DNA of 64,000 nucleotides from Flavobacteriaceae bacterium F08102 (GTDB lineage: Bacteria > Bacteroidota > Bacteroidia > Flavobacteriales > Flavobacteriaceae): assembly GCA_023015935.1 (NCBI GenBank), contig JALKAY010000004.1, forward strand, positions 434,001 through 498,000. Direction: 5' to 3'. Position numbers and translations under genes: made by a program. Under the pieces are notes generated by a model, which saw only the letters and a list, made by a program, of their open reading frames with translations, had not been told where the DNA came from and did no database searches. Of the stretch, positions 28,513-37,716 are shown in pieces; the first letter of the stretch is position 1; every line of letters begins with the position of its first letter.

Positions 28513-31500
28513 CTAGAAATTCACTTCTAGGCCAAACGAAAACCTAACCCCTTCCGTCCCTGTAAACACGTTCCATGTGCCCGTCATAAAGTTGGCTGCA
28601 GTAATCCAAAATCCACCGCCGTAATCGGGATGCCACTTTCTAGAATAATCACCATTATTGACCCAAACACGGCCTAGATCAGTCCCAGTAAATACCCCCA
28701 TTTGAATTGGAGCGAATGGGGTTCTAAATCGGTTAAAACGATAGCGTATATCAAGGTTTCCAACCAATAGGTTATGGCCAGTAAATCGATTGGAATGATA
28801 CCCTCGCAATCCCGTTTCTCCACCTAAATTGGCTGCGTAATAAAAGGGAATATCATTGCTAAAACGGAGGTTGGTGCTAACATTCGATTTAAGGGTCAAC
28901 TGCCTATTCCGTGAAAGACTATTGTAAAAACCGAGGTTAGCATTGAGAAAAGCAAACGTCTTTGACAAGGTATTCAATTCACTTGTCAACCCTGTTTCAA
29001 CGGAAAATACCATTCCCCTGGTAGGTACTAACGGACGATCCAAACTTTTATAGCGATACCCTCCTTTTACAGTACCATAGTGCCGGCGATCCTCACTTCT
29101 AGCGGCAGGATTGGGGGCTACATCAGCAAGAAAAGAACCATCGGCGTACCCAATCGCTATCCCTTCTACCATCGTTTTTACCCTAAATTCACTTCCCGCT
29201 GGAGAATTCTTTACCAATCCTAAAGAAGCCCCGTAGAGGCCTTTACGGATACGATTATACGCCAATCCAAGTTGGTCATCTTCATTGATTGTTTCATTAC
29301 CAAACCCAAAGAAATTAGCTCCGTAATTCGTTGAATTAAAACGTACACCTAGTTCTAGATTCCAGCGCCCACGTAAGTTAAACTCCCCTTCATATTGCAA
29401 ATCAACCCCTTGGAAAGCGGTATAGTAGTTCCCTGAAAAACGATGTTGCCAAGTAAATGGATTAAGTGAAAACCCATGATAAGTATGGCTATAGCGTCCC
29501 CCCACTATGAGTCCGTCATCTGGAGTATACCCAAATCGAGTTGAACCAATATCTACGTAACTAATGGTATGCGTATAATCAAATAGATTTACCTCGTAAT
29601 TATCTGAAAAATACACATTCGCCCCGTTGTTTTTACGAATCGTATTTTTCTTTGTTTTATGATCGTAAATTCTCACGTTAGCCCCGTTCTCTACGGTATA
29701 CGTATCATTATTTTGGCCACCAACTATACGCACTTTAGTTGCATTTGTCACTTTCCCTTTTAGATCAAATACATCCTGACCAGCAAGTCCATAAATCCAT
29801 ATTTCTTTAGTCTGAGGATGGTATAATTTTCGATTGACCAGCTCCACCCCAGGTTTTCCATTAAGAATACTTGAAATTTTAACCTCGGTAACACCTTTTT
29901 CAAAACGCTCCACTTGTATATAATCATCCTGATCTGTCGCCATCACGATAGCTAATCTATGAAGGTAAGCTGCATATCGTTTAGCAAAACTCACTAACTG
30001 TTGCCTTCTTCTTTTTAAATTAACTTTAATTTCGTCTAACGTGCTGTCTTGGACTTGTGATGGTACCCGTTGAAATGCTTGAGATATTACTGCATCTGTA
30101 ATATGTTCTTGCAAATAGGTTGCTTGGGTAATCCATTCAGAAGAATCCGAAGTTTGCAATAAGACACGGTCTAATTCAATCCCTTGGTTATGCATCCATT
30201 TGAAATCTTTAATGATCGAATCATACACGTGAAATTGTTTTGTAGAACTGCAAATTAGCTTCATTACCTCTAAGGAAGCTCCATTAAAATTTGAAAAGAT
30301 GTAATTGCGATCTTTCGGTAAAGGAACATAAAGTACATCGCCATTGGGTTGTTCTGTATGTGTCCACCTCCATGAATCTTGTTGCCCATTCCAATTCCCG
30401 ATCAATAGATCAAAAAGACGCGCTCTAATATAGGCTGCTTCATCAATTTTGTGTTTTTCATTCTTCCTAATACTTGAAATAATAGCATACGTGTTTTCAC
30501 CTTCTGGCCGTTCTGTAAGTGTATATAATTCACCTCCAAACGCGCTGTTAAAATTTCCTAAAGCCTTGTGTTTCGGAATAAAATATAAGGATGGGGTGGG
30601 ATAGTAAAGATCGGCTGCTGCAGACAACACAGGGATTGCCAGAAATGCGTATGGATGTGTTGCTTCATAATAATCAACGCATAAATCACTTACCAAAGTT
30701 TGCTTAAAAGGCTCTTCTATAAAGGTCTTTTGGTTGTGAATCGCTCGCAACCATGGGGATAGCGTCTTACGCAATGCAGTCATGCTTAGCTCTTGTCCAT
30801 CCTTTGTCTGCAATAGCAAAGATTTCCTAGCATGTTCAACATCCTTTCGAATTACCTGTAATCCGCCCTTTAAAGTATCTAAGACGACCACGGGCACCGC
30901 TATAGGAGTGGTATATACATCGCTATAATACCTCCCCCAATCAGATTCAAAGAAAGGTATTTTTTCAGTTTCCTGTTTGCTATACACCGCTATGTGCCTT
31001 GACGATTCAAAATAATCTGGTAGGGTCTCTATAGGATATGATTTTGGTTTTTGAAACACTTCTTTTTGAAATAGGCGTTTAGGTTCACCGCGATCTTCCC
31101 CAAAAAATTGTACCCATGCACTACCATCTTTAAAGACTACTAACCGTGCAAAACCTTGTTTTCCATAGGAAAATAAACCATCATTAGTTAATGAAGCAAA
31201 AGTGCTTTTAGATCCAGAACCTGATATAATTTGTTTAATTTGCCCATTCACAATGTATTGTAAACTATGATCGTGCCCTGAAACAAAAACCAATCGTTCA
31301 TAGTGCTTTACCATGGTTTCTAAACGCTTCATCAATCCGTTATATCGCACATTATATCGATCTTGTATAGAAATTCCACCCTGTGTTCTAATTTGAGTAA
31401 CGAGTGAACCAAGGATAGGTAATGGGATGAGTCGTTCACTAGGCTTAAAATGCTTAGAAAGACGGTATTGTCCACCGTGGATTCCATTGGTATACATCGG

Positions 31501-32171
31501 ATGATGCATGGCAAAGACGATTGTTTTATGTTGATTCCTACTCAATTCCGCATTAATTTCTTCTAAAAAACGAGCTCTTGTTTTAATTGCACAATCCTCA
31601 TTAATGGTTGGGTGCTTATTCCAATCCTCTAAATACCATTCTGTGTCTACTAAAATTAATTGAATATGTTCACCAATGGCAATACTTTCTAGAGGACAAC
31701 CATTTTTTGGTAAAAAAGAATCCTCACCAAGAAATTGTTCAATATAATTTTGTTCCCGTTTTAATCCGTGTAAACCATCCGTATACCAATCGTGATTGCC
31801 TGGAATAAAATGCTTTTACCGTTAAATTTTGTTAACGATTTAATTTGAGAATCTAAATTATACTCGGCAGATTTACGCGCTTTCGCTCCTACTTCAGGCA
31901 TCCCTGCGGGATAAATATTGTCTCCTAAAAACAAAACTACATCCTTTGAGGTATCGCGATTGGCTATGTACTTTTGAAATGTCTGTAAACCGGATGAGGC
32001 ACTGTTTTCAGGCGAAAGACCAGCGTCGCCCAGTAGATAAAAAGTATGTTCAATGGGCTTGTTTGGTAAAAAATTTAATCGATCTGCATCGTATCTGACC
32101 TGTTCTTGAACGGTTGCGCAAGCGCTGAGCAAACATAATCCTAGCAAACAAACCATTGATAATTCTTTCAT
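28513..32171 (-). pseudogene. Metallophosphoesterase-Omp85 (BamA/TamA-like) fusion, split by a one-base frameshift
   Basis: Read on the minus strand, the first part starts at 32171 with a lipoprotein signal (LLSACATVQ) and a calcineurin-like phosphoesterase start (YLLGDAGLSPE, LFLGDNIYPAG) and runs off frame near 31805-31815 (sense ...AGCATTTTATTCCAGG...). Shifting by one base restores IPGNHDWYTDGLHGLKREQ, which holds the next metal motif GNHD, and the frame then stays open to 28513. The rest contains LILVDTEW, MHHPMYTNG and SGHDHSLQ (further metal-site motifs), a middle domain, and a C-terminal surface-antigen/Omp85 barrel (GGETGLRGYHSNRF; last residue Phe). With the lost base the protein would be ~1219 aa, typical for this Bacteroidetes fusion. 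A TTG near 31545 can mimic a start but is internal. Either a real recent knockout or an assembly error in a short T run. Confidence 0.88.
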
Positions 32172-32362: not shown

Positions 32363-33553
32363 ATGACTATGTCCTCTATCATTGAAAAAGCGAATACTTA
32401 TGTTTTTGAATTATTCAAAAAAAAGCTTCCACAACACTTTATTTATCACAATTTTGCGCATACCAAACGCGTTTTAAAAAGTACACGTGAAATAATTGCA
32501 CAATCAAATATTTCTGAAGAGGATACGGTGGTATTACAGTTGGCAGCGATTTTTCACGACACAGGCTATATTGTTAAAAGAAAAGGACATGAAGAAGAAA
32601 GTGTCAAAATAGCCGCAGAGTTTTTAGAAGCTGAAAAAGTAGCTCCTTCCTTCATTGCTAAGGTCAAAGCGTGTATCATGGCTACACAATTTGATCATCA
32701 TCCAACAAATCTTTTAGAAGAAATCATCAAGGATGCAGACACCTCACATTTTGGCAAGGACTATTTTGAAGAAGCAAGTGAATTATTGAGAAAAGAACTG
32801 GAATTAGCGGGAGTCGTTTCTTATAGTCCTAATCAATGGCTCAAACAAAATATAACCATCTTAACGCAAAAGCACTCCTATTATACAGCCTATGCTCATG
32901 AAAAATGGCAGCCACAGAAGGCCCAGCATCTGACCGAGCTAATAAAACGCAATAAAAAGCAAAAAAAGAAACGCAATGTTGAGAAAATAAAAGCCAAATA
33001 CAAAGCACAATACAAACAGGAAAGCCCAGAACGTGGCATCCAAACGTTCTACAGAGTTGCTTTACGCAACCACATTAAATTAAGTGATATTGCTGATACG
33101 AAAGCCAATATTCTACTGTCTGTCAATGCCATTATCATCTCACTCGTCTTATCTAATCTATTATCTAAGCTCGATAATCCTTCGAATAGTTATATGATTG
33201 TACCTACGGCTATCTTTATTGTTTTTAGTGTGATTGCTATGATTTTATCGGTCTTGGCAACACGTCCAAATATTACGCGTGGGGAATTTACCAAACAAGA
33301 TGTTATCGATAAAAAAGTAAACCTGACTTTTTTTGGAAATTTTCATAAAATGGAATTAAAGGAATATGAATGGGCCATCAGTGAATTATTGTTAGACAAA
33401 GATTATGTATACAGTTCCTTGACAAAAGATTTGTATTTCTTAGGAAAGGTTTTAGATAGAAAATACCGTATTTTACGGGTAACCTACACCATTTTTATCG
33501 TGGGAATCGTGGTATCTGTACTCGCGTTTGGAATCGCGTTTAACTATCGGTAA
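32363..33553 (+). CDS. HD-domain phosphohydrolase fused to Pycsar-effector-type transmembrane domain (PycTM/DUF5706-like)
   Basis: 396 aa. Residues ~1-190 form an HD-domain: YHNFAHTKRV, AAIFHDTGYIVKRKGHEEESV and IIKDADTSHFG supply the usual His, His-Asp and Asp metal ligands. A lysine-rich linker (~190-215) leads to a second domain (~222-396) that begins FYRVALRNHIKLSDIADTKA and continues LLSVNAIIISLVLSNLL, then two more hydrophobic helices (~270-290, ~372-392). The SxxADxKAxxLLxVNAxIIS pattern is that of Pycsar-system effectors, which respond to cyclic pyrimidine nucleotides and damage the membrane. No nucleotide cyclase is encoded nearby. Function could be signalling or defence; undecided. 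Confidence 0.82.
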   Translation: MTMSSIIEKANTYVFELFKKKLPQHFIYHNFAHTKRVLKSTREIIAQSNISEEDTVVLQLAAIFHDTGYIVKRKGHEEESVKIAAEFLEAEKVAPSFIAKVKACIMATQFDHHPTNLLEEIIKDADTSHFGKDYFEEASELLRKELELAGVVSYSPNQWLKQNITILTQKHSYYTAYAHEKWQPQKAQHLTELIKRNKKQKKKRNVEKIKAKYKAQYKQESPERGIQTFYRVALRNHIKLSDIADTKANILLSVNAIIISLVLSNLLSKLDNPSNSYMIVPTAIFIVFSVIAMILSVLATRPNITRGEFTKQDVIDKKVNLTFFGNFHKMELKEYEWAISELLLDKDYVYSSLTKDLYFLGKVLDRKYRILRVTYTIFIVGIVVSVLAFGIAFNYR

Positions 33554-34265: not shown

Positions 34266-34302
34266 TAAAAAAATGCTGTGAACGCAAAAGGTTCACAGCA
34301 TT
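34266..34302 (-). terminator. Intrinsic terminator of the M14 peptidase operon
   Basis: Perfect 12-bp stem (AATGCTGTGAAC/GTTCACAGCATT, 34272-34283 and 34291-34302) with a 7-base loop. Read on the minus strand it is followed by seven T. It lies 27 bases behind the stop of the carboxypeptidase gene at 34329. Confidence 0.88.
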
Positions 34303-34328: not shown

Positions 34329-36080
34329 CTATTTATTTGAAGGCTTTTTACTCGTAACAACGCCTCCCTTCACACTATCCACCTGGATGGTGTAATTTCC
34401 ACCTCCTTTGATAATCCATTTCACTGTAACAATGCTATTTCCAGGAATATTTTTCACCACCAATTTTGACGGGTTGTAGCGTTGTTCTGTGGTCACACCA
34501 AAATCGGCATTTTCTACAATCATCCCAGCAACTACCTTAACTCCTTCTATGCTGATATAATCAGGGCGTGTAATTTTATATTTTAAATCCTGACTAGCAT
34601 GGGTAGGCATTAAGCGATCATTTCTTATGGTTGCCGTCACTTCTGTCAAGCCATTTCCAAGTGATTTTTCTTCAATATTGGCAATAGATAATCGCGGCAT
34701 GTGATAGGCGTGATAAAAGGTAAATGCCATATTTCTATGCGCCTCCTCCTCTAGCATAAAGCCAGGGGTAGCCCGACCCAAATTCTTTTTAAACCCTCCA
34801 ATTTCAATTTCTCCATAAACTGGATGATTATAAGGCTCCCATGGGACAAATCCATCTCCAAAAGTCAAATCCTTATCAAAGGTATACATCTGGTTTCTTT
34901 CTCGATCTTTCTCTTTGTAATAAGCAAATGGAGTGAACAGCTCATTCGTAAACGTATACACCCCTCTTGCTCCGTAAAACCAATCTAATTCTCCACCAAA
35001 AACCGAGTATAAATCTTTGTACACAGTGAGATATCGATACCCAGGGAGTAATTTTTCTCCTTTTTTCCCAATCGCATCATAGATTTGAATATCTTGTGCA
35101 TTATATGTAGACAAATCCTCTTCTGCACCCGGACCTCTTAAAATCATACCGCCCGAGTTGTGATAACTCTGCGCTCCAGCAATATTTGGATGTTTTAAAA
35201 CAAAATCAGCTACAGCGCGATTTTCAGGGGCAGAAAATGGATATTTCAAAGCACCACGCTGTACATAATCTGGTTGCCATTTCCACGCCCAATCTCGATT
35301 TGGATCATAATAACCAGGTTTATCTTCATTAATTTTTCCATCACCATCATTATCTATACCTTCTGAACCTAAATACTCATAACGCTGTGCCGTAACTACG
35401 TCATCTGGGTTAATACGTATCATTTGACGCGGATCTTTTGGATCAATTATCATATCCCCATGGTCATTTTTTCTTCTCATTAACGTAATAGAACCATCGC
35501 CATTTAAATCGTCAAACCCATCCTCATCAAAGAGTCCATCTTGATCATCGTCAAGCGGAATCATTCCAGCACGTGGACTACTTCCTGTATTTGCTTCAAG
35601 CATATAGTTATTTCGAGCATCTGGGTTTATCGTCGGAACAATATAAAAGATACGTTCATTTAACATTTCTGTTATATAGTCGTTATGTCCAAAACTTTCT
35701 GTAAGATACCACGCTGTATAGGTACAGATTTCACTCCCCTGAATTTCATTAGAGTGAATATTTCCATCGATGTAAAATCCAGGTTTACGATCTGCATTTC
35801 CCACCTTGTAATTCGTAATTTCCATCATCCAAATATCCCTACCTTCAGTCGATTTACCAATCGAGTGCCGCTTTACTAAATTTGGGTAAGCTTTCGCAAT
35901 TTTTTTACTAATTTCAGCCAACCCTTCTGCGGTGTAATACCTATTAAAAGCAACGTGTACTTTAGGATTTGCTGGGGTACCAACTGCACTAAATATTTCT
36001 GCACTAGACTGCGATTGTACGAACATTGGGAAGCATAAGGTCAACCCTAGTATTCCGATAATATTTTTAACTACGCTCAT
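34329..36080 (-). CDS. M14-family zinc carboxypeptidase, exported
   Basis: 583 aa with signal peptide (MFVQSQ, ~1-24). The M14 zinc site is complete: His109-x-x-Glu112 (GNIHSNEIQG) and His307 (AQSYHNSGG), with catalytic Glu380 (YTFTNELF). Between them is an insert with calcium-loop-like runs DDDQDGLFDEDGF, DLNGDG and DNDGDGKINED (~177-252), not part of the core fold. The C-terminal ~130 residues form a beta domain, perhaps for cell-surface binding. It removes C-terminal residues from peptides outside the cytoplasm or acts on a similar amide. It starts 4 bases after the stop of the inactive paralogue 36085-37716, so both are co-translated. Confidence 0.92.
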   Translation of the reverse strand: MSVVKNIIGILGLTLCFPMFVQSQSSAEIFSAVGTPANPKVHVAFNRYYTAEGLAEISKKIAKAYPNLVKRHSIGKSTEGRDIWMMEITNYKVGNADRKPGFYIDGNIHSNEIQGSEICTYTAWYLTESFGHNDYITEMLNERIFYIVPTINPDARNNYMLEANTGSSPRAGMIPLDDDQDGLFDEDGFDDLNGDGSITLMRRKNDHGDMIIDPKDPRQMIRINPDDVVTAQRYEYLGSEGIDNDGDGKINEDKPGYYDPNRDWAWKWQPDYVQRGALKYPFSAPENRAVADFVLKHPNIAGAQSYHNSGGMILRGPGAEEDLSTYNAQDIQIYDAIGKKGEKLLPGYRYLTVYKDLYSVFGGELDWFYGARGVYTFTNELFTPFAYYKEKDRERNQMYTFDKDLTFGDGFVPWEPYNHPVYGEIEIGGFKKNLGRATPGFMLEEEAHRNMAFTFYHAYHMPRLSIANIEEKSLGNGLTEVTATIRNDRLMPTHASQDLKYKITRPDYISIEGVKVVAGMIVENADFGVTTEQRYNPSKLVVKNIPGNSIVTVKWIIKGGGNYTIQVDSVKGGVVTSKKPSNK

Positions 36081-36084
36081 GATC

Positions 36085-37716
36085 TTATTTTAAGTTTACC
36101 GTTGTTTTATCAATTCCTGTATGCGCTGCTCCAGCACTAATTTCAACCTTACCGTTACCTTTTATTAACCACGTAAATGTTTCACTACCATCACCAGGTA
36201 AACTACCGATCAACTGTGTTTTTTTACCTGAAATAACTTCCTGACCTTTACGGAGTTTAAGGGTTACCATAATTTTTTGTAGCCACCGTGAACGCTGTCC
36301 CATCTCTGTATGTGTAGGTAAAAACCCCTTATTATGAACCTGGACGGTAATTCGCGTCAACCCATTATTCACATTTTCTACCGTAACATTTTCCAATTTT
36401 ATTTCGGCTTGCATCTCTGCAACCGCAACGATAAAATCAGTATGCTTTTTACTGATATCTTTAACCATCGAATAAGGTGGAGTAAACATTACATAAGGTG
36501 CAATACCTCCTACTTCCACTTTTTTTCCTGGAAAATTTGGATGTTCTACAGGAGTCCATTCAACAAAATAGCTTGGTATCTCCTCTTTCGCTGCCCATTG
36601 TAAAAAATTAGCTTCTATATGTTTCGCGGCCTTCACTAAAGAGTCTCCTTTAAATTTTGGCGGCCACCACCCTGGCGTACTCATCGCTAAGCGTCCAAAA
36701 TGAAAATAAGACCATTCAAAAAAACCACCTTGCTGCACTTCATATTTAGGTGCATCCTTGGTTTCAGTAAGATCATTGTATTTTTTAGAAAGGTATTTAT
36801 TGAGTACTTCATCATCTTTTAAGATACTTGTAACCACCCTCTTTTTTGCCTTTCCCGCAGTATACTTTAAAGGTGAAGAAAGGTTGTTTGATGGTCCTAA
36901 CGTTAAGATTGCATACAAATTCCACTGATCATACAAGAAATCAAGTAAAGCTCGGTGTTCTTTTTCAGAAACTGCATGTTCTCCAGCTCCTGGTGTGAAA
37001 TACGGGTAATCAAAAGTTAAATTTTTATTGAAATTTACCCCTCCTGGTCCATCTTCATTAAACTCCCCATCGTAATCATTATCAATTCCTTCTGTATAAA
37101 CTTTATATCCCCCCATCTGACCCTTTTCTGCATCTGCTTTCACCATAATCCGCTCGTCTTCATCTAATTTTACATAATCTCCGGTAGGATCTTCCACGCG
37201 AACCAACGTAATTAATCCATCCTTATTTAAATCTTCAAATGGATCTTCGTCAACTTGACCATCACGGTCATCATCAGTACTTCGGCTATTTGCTAGACGC
37301 TCATATTTTAACGCTTCGTGATAGTTTTCACTCGCTTTAGGACTCATATTAGGAAAAATATAAAAAGTCGTTTTCGCTAAAACTTCAGAGTGCTCCGCGA
37401 GCAATTGTTCTGCCATTTGTAAAGCCATCTCAACAGTCAAAACTCGACTTCCATCAACGCCACCTACAATTGCAATGCCTGGGTGACTCCCTGGATCTCC
37501 TTTAGAGAGTGTCAAATTCCAAATATCATACCCTCCTTCAGTTTTTGTTAAGGATGTTAATTTGGCTAGTGTGGGGTATTTTGTTTGTAAATTCTTTAGT
37601 TTTGAAGTTAATTGTTGATAATTGATATAATCGGTTTGTGCAATACTGCGTATTGACATACAACAAATTAACCCACAAAGCATTAAGCTTTTGAAGGGTA
37701 TTCTTTTTGTTCTCAT
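36085..37716 (-). CDS. M14-carboxypeptidase-like protein without zinc ligands (probable pseudoenzyme)
   Basis: 543 aa from the ATG at 37716, which gives a signal peptide (SLMLCGLICCMSIRSIAQ); the longer frame to 37800 has a non-signal head. It is paralogous to the next gene with the same order of parts, including the calcium-loop-like insert (DDDRDGQVDEDPFEDLNKDG and DNDYDGEFNED). The zinc motif HxxE is replaced by Asp-x-x-Arg (VGGVDGSRVL), and the His of the third ligand is also missing (LTLGPSNNLSSP). It should therefore not bind zinc. The tight operon with an intact enzyme suggests a regulatory or substrate-binding partner, perhaps a heterodimer. Reading of the alignment is by eye. Confidence 0.85.
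   Translation of the reverse strand: MRTKRIPFKSLMLCGLICCMSIRSIAQTDYINYQQLTSKLKNLQTKYPTLAKLTSLTKTEGGYDIWNLTLSKGDPGSHPGIAIVGGVDGSRVLTVEMALQMAEQLLAEHSEVLAKTTFYIFPNMSPKASENYHEALKYERLANSRSTDDDRDGQVDEDPFEDLNKDGLITLVRVEDPTGDYVKLDEDERIMVKADAEKGQMGGYKVYTEGIDNDYDGEFNEDGPGGVNFNKNLTFDYPYFTPGAGEHAVSEKEHRALLDFLYDQWNLYAILTLGPSNNLSSPLKYTAGKAKKRVVTSILKDDEVLNKYLSKKYNDLTETKDAPKYEVQQGGFFEWSYFHFGRLAMSTPGWWPPKFKGDSLVKAAKHIEANFLQWAAKEEIPSYFVEWTPVEHPNFPGKKVEVGGIAPYVMFTPPYSMVKDISKKHTDFIVAVAEMQAEIKLENVTVENVNNGLTRITVQVHNKGFLPTHTEMGQRSRWLQKIMVTLKLRKGQEVISGKKTQLIGSLPGDGSETFTWLIKGNGKVEISAGAAHTGIDKTTVNLK

What the first reader, a model, noticed from the sequence alone, without database searches (positions are those of the whole stretch)
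34329..37716. Active M14 carboxypeptidase paired with a zinc-less paralogue
The downstream enzyme has His109/Glu112/His307/Glu380, but the upstream paralogue has Asp and Arg in place of the HxxE pair and lost the third His. Genes are 4 bp apart. An exported enzyme-pseudoenzyme pair suggests a heterodimer or a dedicated binding partner.
Basis: partly seen in the sequence, partly recalled or inferred. Interest (0 to 1): 0.5.

Follow-up and report, generated by a model that had tools for sequence, protein, structure and literature searches.

The report
Carboxypeptidase paired with zinc-less twin
Many bacteria of the Bacteroidota keep, side by side, an exported protein-trimming enzyme and a twin of it that has lost every part needed for the reaction; the dead twin is kept intact by selection, so it must do some other job, probably as a partner of the working enzyme.

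Summary
Gene A (34329-36080, minus strand) is an M14 zinc carboxypeptidase with H109/E112/H307 and general base E380. Gene P, 4 bp upstream (36085-37716), is a paralogue (26% identity) with D88, R91, G274 and P348 there. P belongs to a conserved pseudoenzyme family. Of 111 distinct P proteins none keeps H109, H307 or E380, and one has Glu at 112; they share replacements of their own. A and P each fall on one side of a branch, so one old duplication fits. P is under purifying selection (median dN/dS 0.058; A 0.019). P lies directly upstream of A in 110 of 121 loci. In 395 sampled genomes of the phylum, 36 of the 37 with A also have P; in the exception A starts at a contig end. In two genomes the genes are on separate contigs, yet both are present. 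P is predicted to fold as M14 (pLDDT 92; Carboxypeptidase T, Z 30.7). My reading is an exported enzyme-pseudoenzyme pair, most likely a heterodimer. Contact is not shown: a tandem AlphaFold2 model gave pTM 0.63. The kind is known (MPP, Csd1-Csd2, Sph2681/2682); a bacterial M14 version was not found in seven paper searches.

The parts
34329..36080 (-). Gene A: exported M14 zinc carboxypeptidase, 583 aa; zinc ligands H109, E112, H307; N261-R262; general base E380; Asp-rich insert from D177; C-terminal beta domain
   Evidence: the C-terminal domain and fold are from the L088 relative
36085..37716 (-). Gene P: exported M14 pseudoenzyme, 543 aa from ATG; D88, R91, G274, P348 at the catalytic places; keeps N230, K231 and the Asp-rich insert
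36081..36084 (-). 4-base gap between the stop of P and the ATG of A; no terminator-like site on the minus strand between the genes
34272..34302 (-). Terminator-like hairpin (12 pairs, then T run) just after gene A, consistent with a transcript that ends there
   Evidence: 4 terminator-like sites found in the region, 3.0 expected in shuffles; this is the only one on the minus strand

Best explanation
The pair is a two-gene unit that exports an active carboxypeptidase (A) and its zinc-less paralogue (P), which work together, most likely as a heterodimer in the periplasm or outside the cell. Shown: gene order, loss of all catalytic residues in P, retention of P under purifying selection, a predicted M14 fold for P, A and P each on one side of a branch, and near-perfect co-occurrence. 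Inferred: P is made first from a shared message, folds as an M14 domain with no metal, and binds A, steadying it or helping to choose substrates. P mostly keeps Asn and Lys/Arg at the two places that in carboxypeptidase A hold the C-terminal carboxylate (N144 recalled; R145 in the review's table), so it may still grip peptide C-termini without cutting them. A then removes the C-terminal residue, probably a hydrophobic one.
For: Losses in P across the family: 0 of 111 keep H109, H307 or E380; 1 of 111 has Glu at 112; in A HxxE is kept in 113 of 113 that can be read there and E380 in 114 of 114. New conserved residues in P: Glu/Asp 90 and Lys 12 of 111 at 109; His 86 at 112; Gly/Ser 109 at 307; Pro 101 at 380; Asn 96 and 106 at 310 and 311; Asn 98 at 261; Lys/Arg 101 at 262. 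P then A on one strand in 110 of 121 loci; stop-to-ATG median 8 bases, 94 of 105 between -30 and +60, taking the in-frame ATG nearest to P's stop. Phylum sample of 395 genomes, the window's included: 37 carry A (over 400 bits), 36 of these also P, 35 adjacent (counted by eye). P and A on different contigs in G247 and Raineya orbicola. In the genus of G167, P in 59 of 59 genomes, the start of A directly downstream in 58. Median dN/dS P 0.058 (36 comparisons), A 0.019 (25). P model pLDDT 92.4, pTM 0.91, Carboxypeptidase T Z 30.7 over 283 residues. Tree: A support 99, P support 98; all 10 outgroup rows keep an HxxE, so loss in P is the simpler direction. Hydrophobic N-terminus, crude measure, in 110 of 114 A and 109 of 111 P.
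Against: The tandem AlphaFold2 model does not give a confident arrangement of P and A (pTM 0.63, no PAE shown). Paired mutual information was dominated by relatedness and said nothing. Neighbour genes kept together need not make touching proteins. In two genomes the genes are on different contigs. P changes faster than A (mean pairwise distance 0.58 against 0.46; dN/dS about three times higher). The distance correlation (r 0.85) is also what shared descent alone would give. A's invariant R170 (113 of 113) faces a gap in all 111 P rows (P's R140, 98 of 111, lies near and may or may not replace it) and Tyr358 is lost, so peptide binding by P is weakly based. None of the 16 congeners has P, so the pair can be done without.
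Confidence: 0.55

Rival explanations
1. P is an independent exported binding protein, for example a catcher of peptide C-termini or of a cell-wall peptide, that serves the same pathway as A without touching it.
For: Several former-pocket columns of P are well conserved with P's own residues; Asn and Lys/Arg at the carboxylate-binding places are mostly kept; no confident P-A arrangement in the tandem model.
Against: In the phylum sample 36 of 36 genomes with P carry A; a free-standing binder would be expected alone at times. Only G504 (about 83% complete, P cut by a contig end) showed P without A.
Confidence: 0.22
2. P is a dedicated inhibitor, decoy or zymogen-like guard of A that holds A quiet during export.
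For: P is encoded first, next to A; strict pairing.
Against: P is a full-length M14 domain of nearly A's size with its own conserved former pocket, more than an inhibitor would need; no Pfam family but M14 was found in it.
Confidence: 0.1
3. P has a new activity or a rearranged metal site, built from the reversed ExxH pair and other conserved residues.
For: ExxH 54 and DxxH 12 of 111 P rows; His 339 in 108 and His 392 in 111 of 111; conserved Arg342, Thr347, Pro348, Trp350 columns.
Against: The pair is KxxH in 12 of 111 and Asp/Arg in the window, with Gly/Ser at the third ligand in 109 of 111; a metal site of this kind is not kept across the family.
Confidence: 0.08
4. P is a decaying duplicate.
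For: Catalytic residues lost; P split into two frames in G172 (L072).
Against: Median dN/dS 0.058; 107 loci with both genes at 400 aa or more after identical proteins were counted once; P in 59 of 59 genomes of one genus, one a fragment and one cut by a contig end; well-folded model.
Confidence: 0.02

Closest known systems
Carboxypeptidase T / M14 carboxypeptidases (Pfam PF00246)
   Same: A: fold (L088 relative, Z 35.1 to 3prt, 304 residues), HxxE, third His, Asn-Arg, Tyr and Glu. P: same fold (Z 30.7, 283 residues).
   Different: Both carry an Asp-rich insert and a further C-terminal beta domain; P lacks the ligands and the general base.
M14 pseudopeptidases of animals and yeast (AEBP1, CPXM1, CPXM2, CPD domain III, Ecm14; PMC11266112, 12 of 20 passages seen)
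   Same: M14 proteins with lost catalytic residues. CPD is the nearest in plan: three peptidase units in one chain, the third inactive (that the other two are active is recalled).
   Different: The review's table gives H69 for all five; here none of 111 keeps either zinc His or the general base. The passages name four vertebrate members and one characterized yeast member, no bacterial one. In CPD the units are one chain; here they are two genes. No discoidin domain or prodomain was found in P.
Csd1-Csd2 of Helicobacter pylori (M23B heterodimer; PMC5053510, abstract read)
   Same: Zinc-bearing peptidase plus a related protein with incomplete ligands and no metal; a crystal heterodimer is known.
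   Different: Other peptidase family, acting on cell-wall peptides; here the complex is not shown.
Bacterial M16B pairs such as Sph2681/Sph2682 and PttP1/PttP2 (PMC8960859, passages read) and mitochondrial processing peptidase (named in a table passage of PMC11266112)
   Same: Active subunit with the zinc motif plus a subunit without it that helps to bind substrate.
   Different: M16 fold, endopeptidases (recalled); here an M14 exopeptidase fold, and complex formation is untested.

Membership tests
M14 zinc carboxypeptidase (enzyme A) | Profile match above the curated cut-off | tested here: met
   136.9 bits, cut-off 21.6
M14 zinc carboxypeptidase (enzyme A) | HxxE + His zinc ligands and general-base Glu | tested here: met
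   H109, E112, H307, E380; 113 of 113 readable A proteins keep HxxE, 112 of 114 H307 (1 unreadable, 1 Leu in an extra copy), 114 of 114 E380
M14 zinc carboxypeptidase (enzyme A) | Carboxypeptidase activity | not testable with these tools
   sequence only
M14 fold (protein P) | Profile match and fold | tested here: met
   56.5 bits, cut-off 21.6; model pLDDT 92.4, Carboxypeptidase T Z 30.7, rmsd 2.8, 283 residues
Active M14 peptidase (protein P) | Zinc ligands and general base | tested here: not met
   D88, R91, G274, P348; none of 111 P proteins keeps H109, H307 or E380, one has Glu112; no other shared HxxE
Known M14 pseudopeptidases (AEBP1/CPXM/CPD-III/Ecm14) | Lost catalytic residues in an exported M14 protein | tested here: met
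   (export by a crude hydrophobicity measure)
Known M14 pseudopeptidases (AEBP1/CPXM/CPD-III/Ecm14) | N-terminal discoidin domain or prodomain | tested here: not met
   only PF00246 found in P; the folded part begins about residue 28 of 543
Enzyme-pseudoenzyme peptidase pair (MPP, Csd1-Csd2, Sph2681/2682) | Related active and inactive members kept together | tested here: met
Enzyme-pseudoenzyme peptidase pair (MPP, Csd1-Csd2, Sph2681/2682) | Stable physical complex | tested here: inconclusive
   tandem model pTM 0.63; covariation uninformative

The most novel reading that the evidence does not exclude
P is a peptide C-terminus receptor built from a dead carboxypeptidase: it grips the carboxylate of peptides with the kept Asn-Lys/Arg pair and hands them to A, so that the pair is a two-site exopeptidase in which one subunit reads and the other cuts.
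Probability: 0.15. Interest if true: 0.75.

Novelty: new variant of a known kind. Interest (0 to 1): 0.52.

Why it matters
Enzyme-pseudoenzyme pairs are known in M16 and M23 peptidases. The M14 pseudopeptidases in the passages I saw (PMC11266112) are from vertebrates and yeast, and none is a separate gene kept beside an active twin. Here an M14 pair is spread over much of the Bacteroidota, found in all 59 sampled genomes of one genus, and encoded as a minimal two-gene unit. That makes it a simple test case for what a peptidase gains from a catalytically dead paralogue, and it shows that a protein that passes the 'zinc carboxypeptidase' profile cut-off can lack every catalytic residue.

Tried and rejected
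Second zinc motif in P: looked for, none shared. Decay: rejected by dN/dS and spread. Conserved third partner gene: none found; the commonest neighbour family is in 22 of 107 loci, upstream and in 22 of 23 genes on the other strand, and 14 of these 22 loci bear Algoriphagus titles, so local synteny explains it; flanks were cut by contig ends in some loci, so counts are lower bounds. Natural P-A fusion: none appeared among the frames. Physical contact by folding a tandem read-through: pTM 0.63, not decisive, since two well-folded but loosely placed modules could give such a value (my judgement). Paired mutual information: dominated by relatedness. Plasmid spread: one weak match (two places in one record), of which I read one, a stand-alone haloarchaeal M14 protein with an HxxE. 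Papers: searches listed no bacterial M14 enzyme-pseudoenzyme pair; the library holds open-licence papers only.

Mended on recheck: the tree held a wrong row (for L171 my script took a 960-aa frame on the other strand instead of the 694-aa frame); the tree was built again without that row, and P's support rose from 92 to 98. Four genomes without a listed A were searched with A: G458, G462 and G485 hold the start of A directly downstream of P at a contig end and the rest on another contig; G504 shows no A.

Limits: the loci were sought with P, so they cannot show A without P; that rests on the phylum sample. Rows dropped: frames under 400 aa and profile scores under 400 bits (L083) before the counts; identical proteins counted once. 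One search's 121 loci include some genomes twice, two stretches that are not members (L083, L084), and L067/L068 from one genome. dN/dS used pairs with P identity 72 to 99.5% and dS 0.2 to 2, not independent of each other. The trees use the quick method; long branches (L083, L070 P, L065 P) remain. (OmpA search) and the 10-base stretch served no question.

Full report
What is there. On the minus strand of the window, gene P (36085-37716, 543 aa) is followed after 4 bases by gene A (34329-36080, 583 aa), and A is followed by a terminator-like hairpin at 34302-34272. Both match Pfam Peptidase_M14 over its cut-off (A 136.9 bits, P 56.5 bits, cut-off 21.6) and each other (26% identity over 552 columns, E 9e-43). 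A has H109, E112, H307 and E380; P has D88, R91, G274 and P348 at the same columns. No HxxE exists in the window's P. The nearest solved structure by sequence is Carboxypeptidase T for A and for the P profile; for the window's P alone it is a carboxypeptidase B (7eqx, E 1.6e-5), then Carboxypeptidase T.

It is a conserved family, not an accident of one genome. Among 60 close genomes searched, only the window's own matched P (16 congeners without it, some of them incomplete), so the pair is patchy near home. In a sample of 395 genomes of the phylum, 43 matched. With A as query over the same sample, 37 genomes, the window's included, hold an A-type protein over 400 bits; 36 of these hold P, 35 with P next to A (my count by eye). 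The one without P (G191) has A at the very start of a contig. The other 6 of the 43 hold only a more distant M14 type. In the genus of G167 (Algoriphagus, judged by a contig of the same length as that of L098) P was found in 59 of 59 genomes, one a fragment. A or its start lies directly downstream in 58 of 59: 55 by eye and three more, cut by contig ends. In G504, about 83% complete and with P cut by a contig end, A was not found.

Gene order. Of 121 loci looked at, the window included, 110 have P directly before A on one strand. The others: G247 (L067 and L068), with P and A on different contigs; L158 (Raineya orbicola), P alone at this place with A on another contig of that genome; L094 and L082, cut by contig ends; L072 (P in two frames and a second A), L075 and L139 (a second A), L164 (A in two frames); and two stretches that are not members (L083, L084). 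The distance from P's stop to the nearest suitable ATG of A has a median of 8 bases and lies between -30 and +60 in 94 of 105 pairs; choosing the nearest ATG leans towards short distances. No third gene family is near the pair in more than 22 of 107 loci.

Residues. In 111 distinct P proteins, none keeps H109, H307 or E380 and one has a Glu at 112. Their replacements are themselves conserved: Glu/Asp (90) or Lys (12) at 109, His (86) at 112, Gly/Ser (109) at 307, Pro (101) at 380, Asn at 261 (98), Lys/Arg at 262 (101), Asn at 310 and 311 (96 and 106), Arg at 374 (102), Trp at 382 (93). ExxH is the commonest pair at 109/112 (54 of 111). By entropy over 54 pairs some of these columns rank among the better conserved fifth of P, but those at 109 and 112 rank near the middle (0.48 and 0.45), so the old ligand places themselves are not strictly fixed. 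In 114 distinct A proteins HxxE is kept in all 113 that can be read there, E380 in 114, and H307 in 112, with one unreadable and one Leu in an extra A copy (L075). The near-invariant A residues R170 (113 of 113) and Y358 (114 of 114) have no clear counterpart in P. Leu/Ile at A365 (100 of 114) fits a hydrophobic S1' pocket by comparison with carboxypeptidase A as I recall it. The Asp-rich insert is kept in both (D177, D179 and D181 columns: A 112-113 of 114, P 104-111 of 111).

Evolution. A first tree held one wrong outgroup row; the tree built without it, 54 pairs and 10 outgroup rows, puts A on one side of a branch (support 99) and P on one side of another (98). All 10 outgroup rows hold an HxxE. 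This fits a single old duplication followed by one loss of catalysis. Median dN/dS among near relatives is 0.058 for P (36 comparisons) and 0.019 for A (25); the comparisons share sequences and are not independent. Distances of P and A between species correlate (r 0.85, 0 of 2000 permutations as high), which shared inheritance explains without contact.

Structure. The window's P, folded with 63 relatives, gives mean pLDDT 92.4 and pTM 0.91, and its best solved match is Carboxypeptidase T (6f79, Z 30.7, rmsd 2.8, 283 aligned, several rows tied; Foldseek E 2.7e-14 to 3prt). To look for contact I used 29 loci in which P and A share a frame, read through the stop between them, plus 29 P rows and 27 A rows, 85 in all. 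The L088 tandem gave pLDDT 87.0 and pTM 0.63, with the link at 515-545 under 50: two good modules, no confident arrangement that I can show. A's half matches Carboxypeptidase T with Z 35.1.

Reading. Shown: a conserved pair of paralogues with export-type N-termini, one an intact M14 enzyme by sequence, the other without any catalytic residue, kept by selection and found together. Inferred: they work together, most likely as a heterodimer in which P supports or feeds A. The kind of arrangement is known from M16 and M23 peptidases (PMC8960859 passages, PMC5053510 abstract) and from mitochondrial processing peptidase (named in a table of PMC11266112). The review of metallopeptidase pseudoenzymes, in the passages shown, names M14 pseudopeptidases of vertebrates and yeast; its CPD carries an inactive M14 unit in one chain with two others. 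I found no paper on this bacterial pair in seven searches. I rate it a new variant of a known kind.

Noticed in passing
window 28513-32171, minus strand: A metallophosphatase-type N-terminal part (31761-32171, weak PhoD match below its cut-off) and a long frame with an Omp85-type end (28513-31815) look like one gene broken by a frame change where they overlap; real mutation or assembly error not settled.
   Followed up: partly
window 32363-33553, plus strand: HD-domain protein with a PycTM (Pycsar effector) membrane domain; no cyclase among the eight proteins scanned around it.
   Followed up: no
L075 499-2229: Triple P-A-A: the first A copy has Leu in place of the third zinc His, perhaps a second, younger loss of catalysis.
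   Followed up: no
L053 (G150 contig 1) and L054 (G150 contig 3): One genome carries two P-A pairs, one close to the main family and one divergent (A 64% and 41% identical to the window's A).
   Followed up: no
L180 5001-6635: A haloarchaeal plasmid encodes a stand-alone M14 protein similar to P over 92% of the query (23.5% identity) but with an HxxE.
   Followed up: partly
genomes G001-G016 (congeners): None of 16 congeners matched P at E 1e-5 although distant families have it, which suggests transfer or repeated loss.
   Followed up: no
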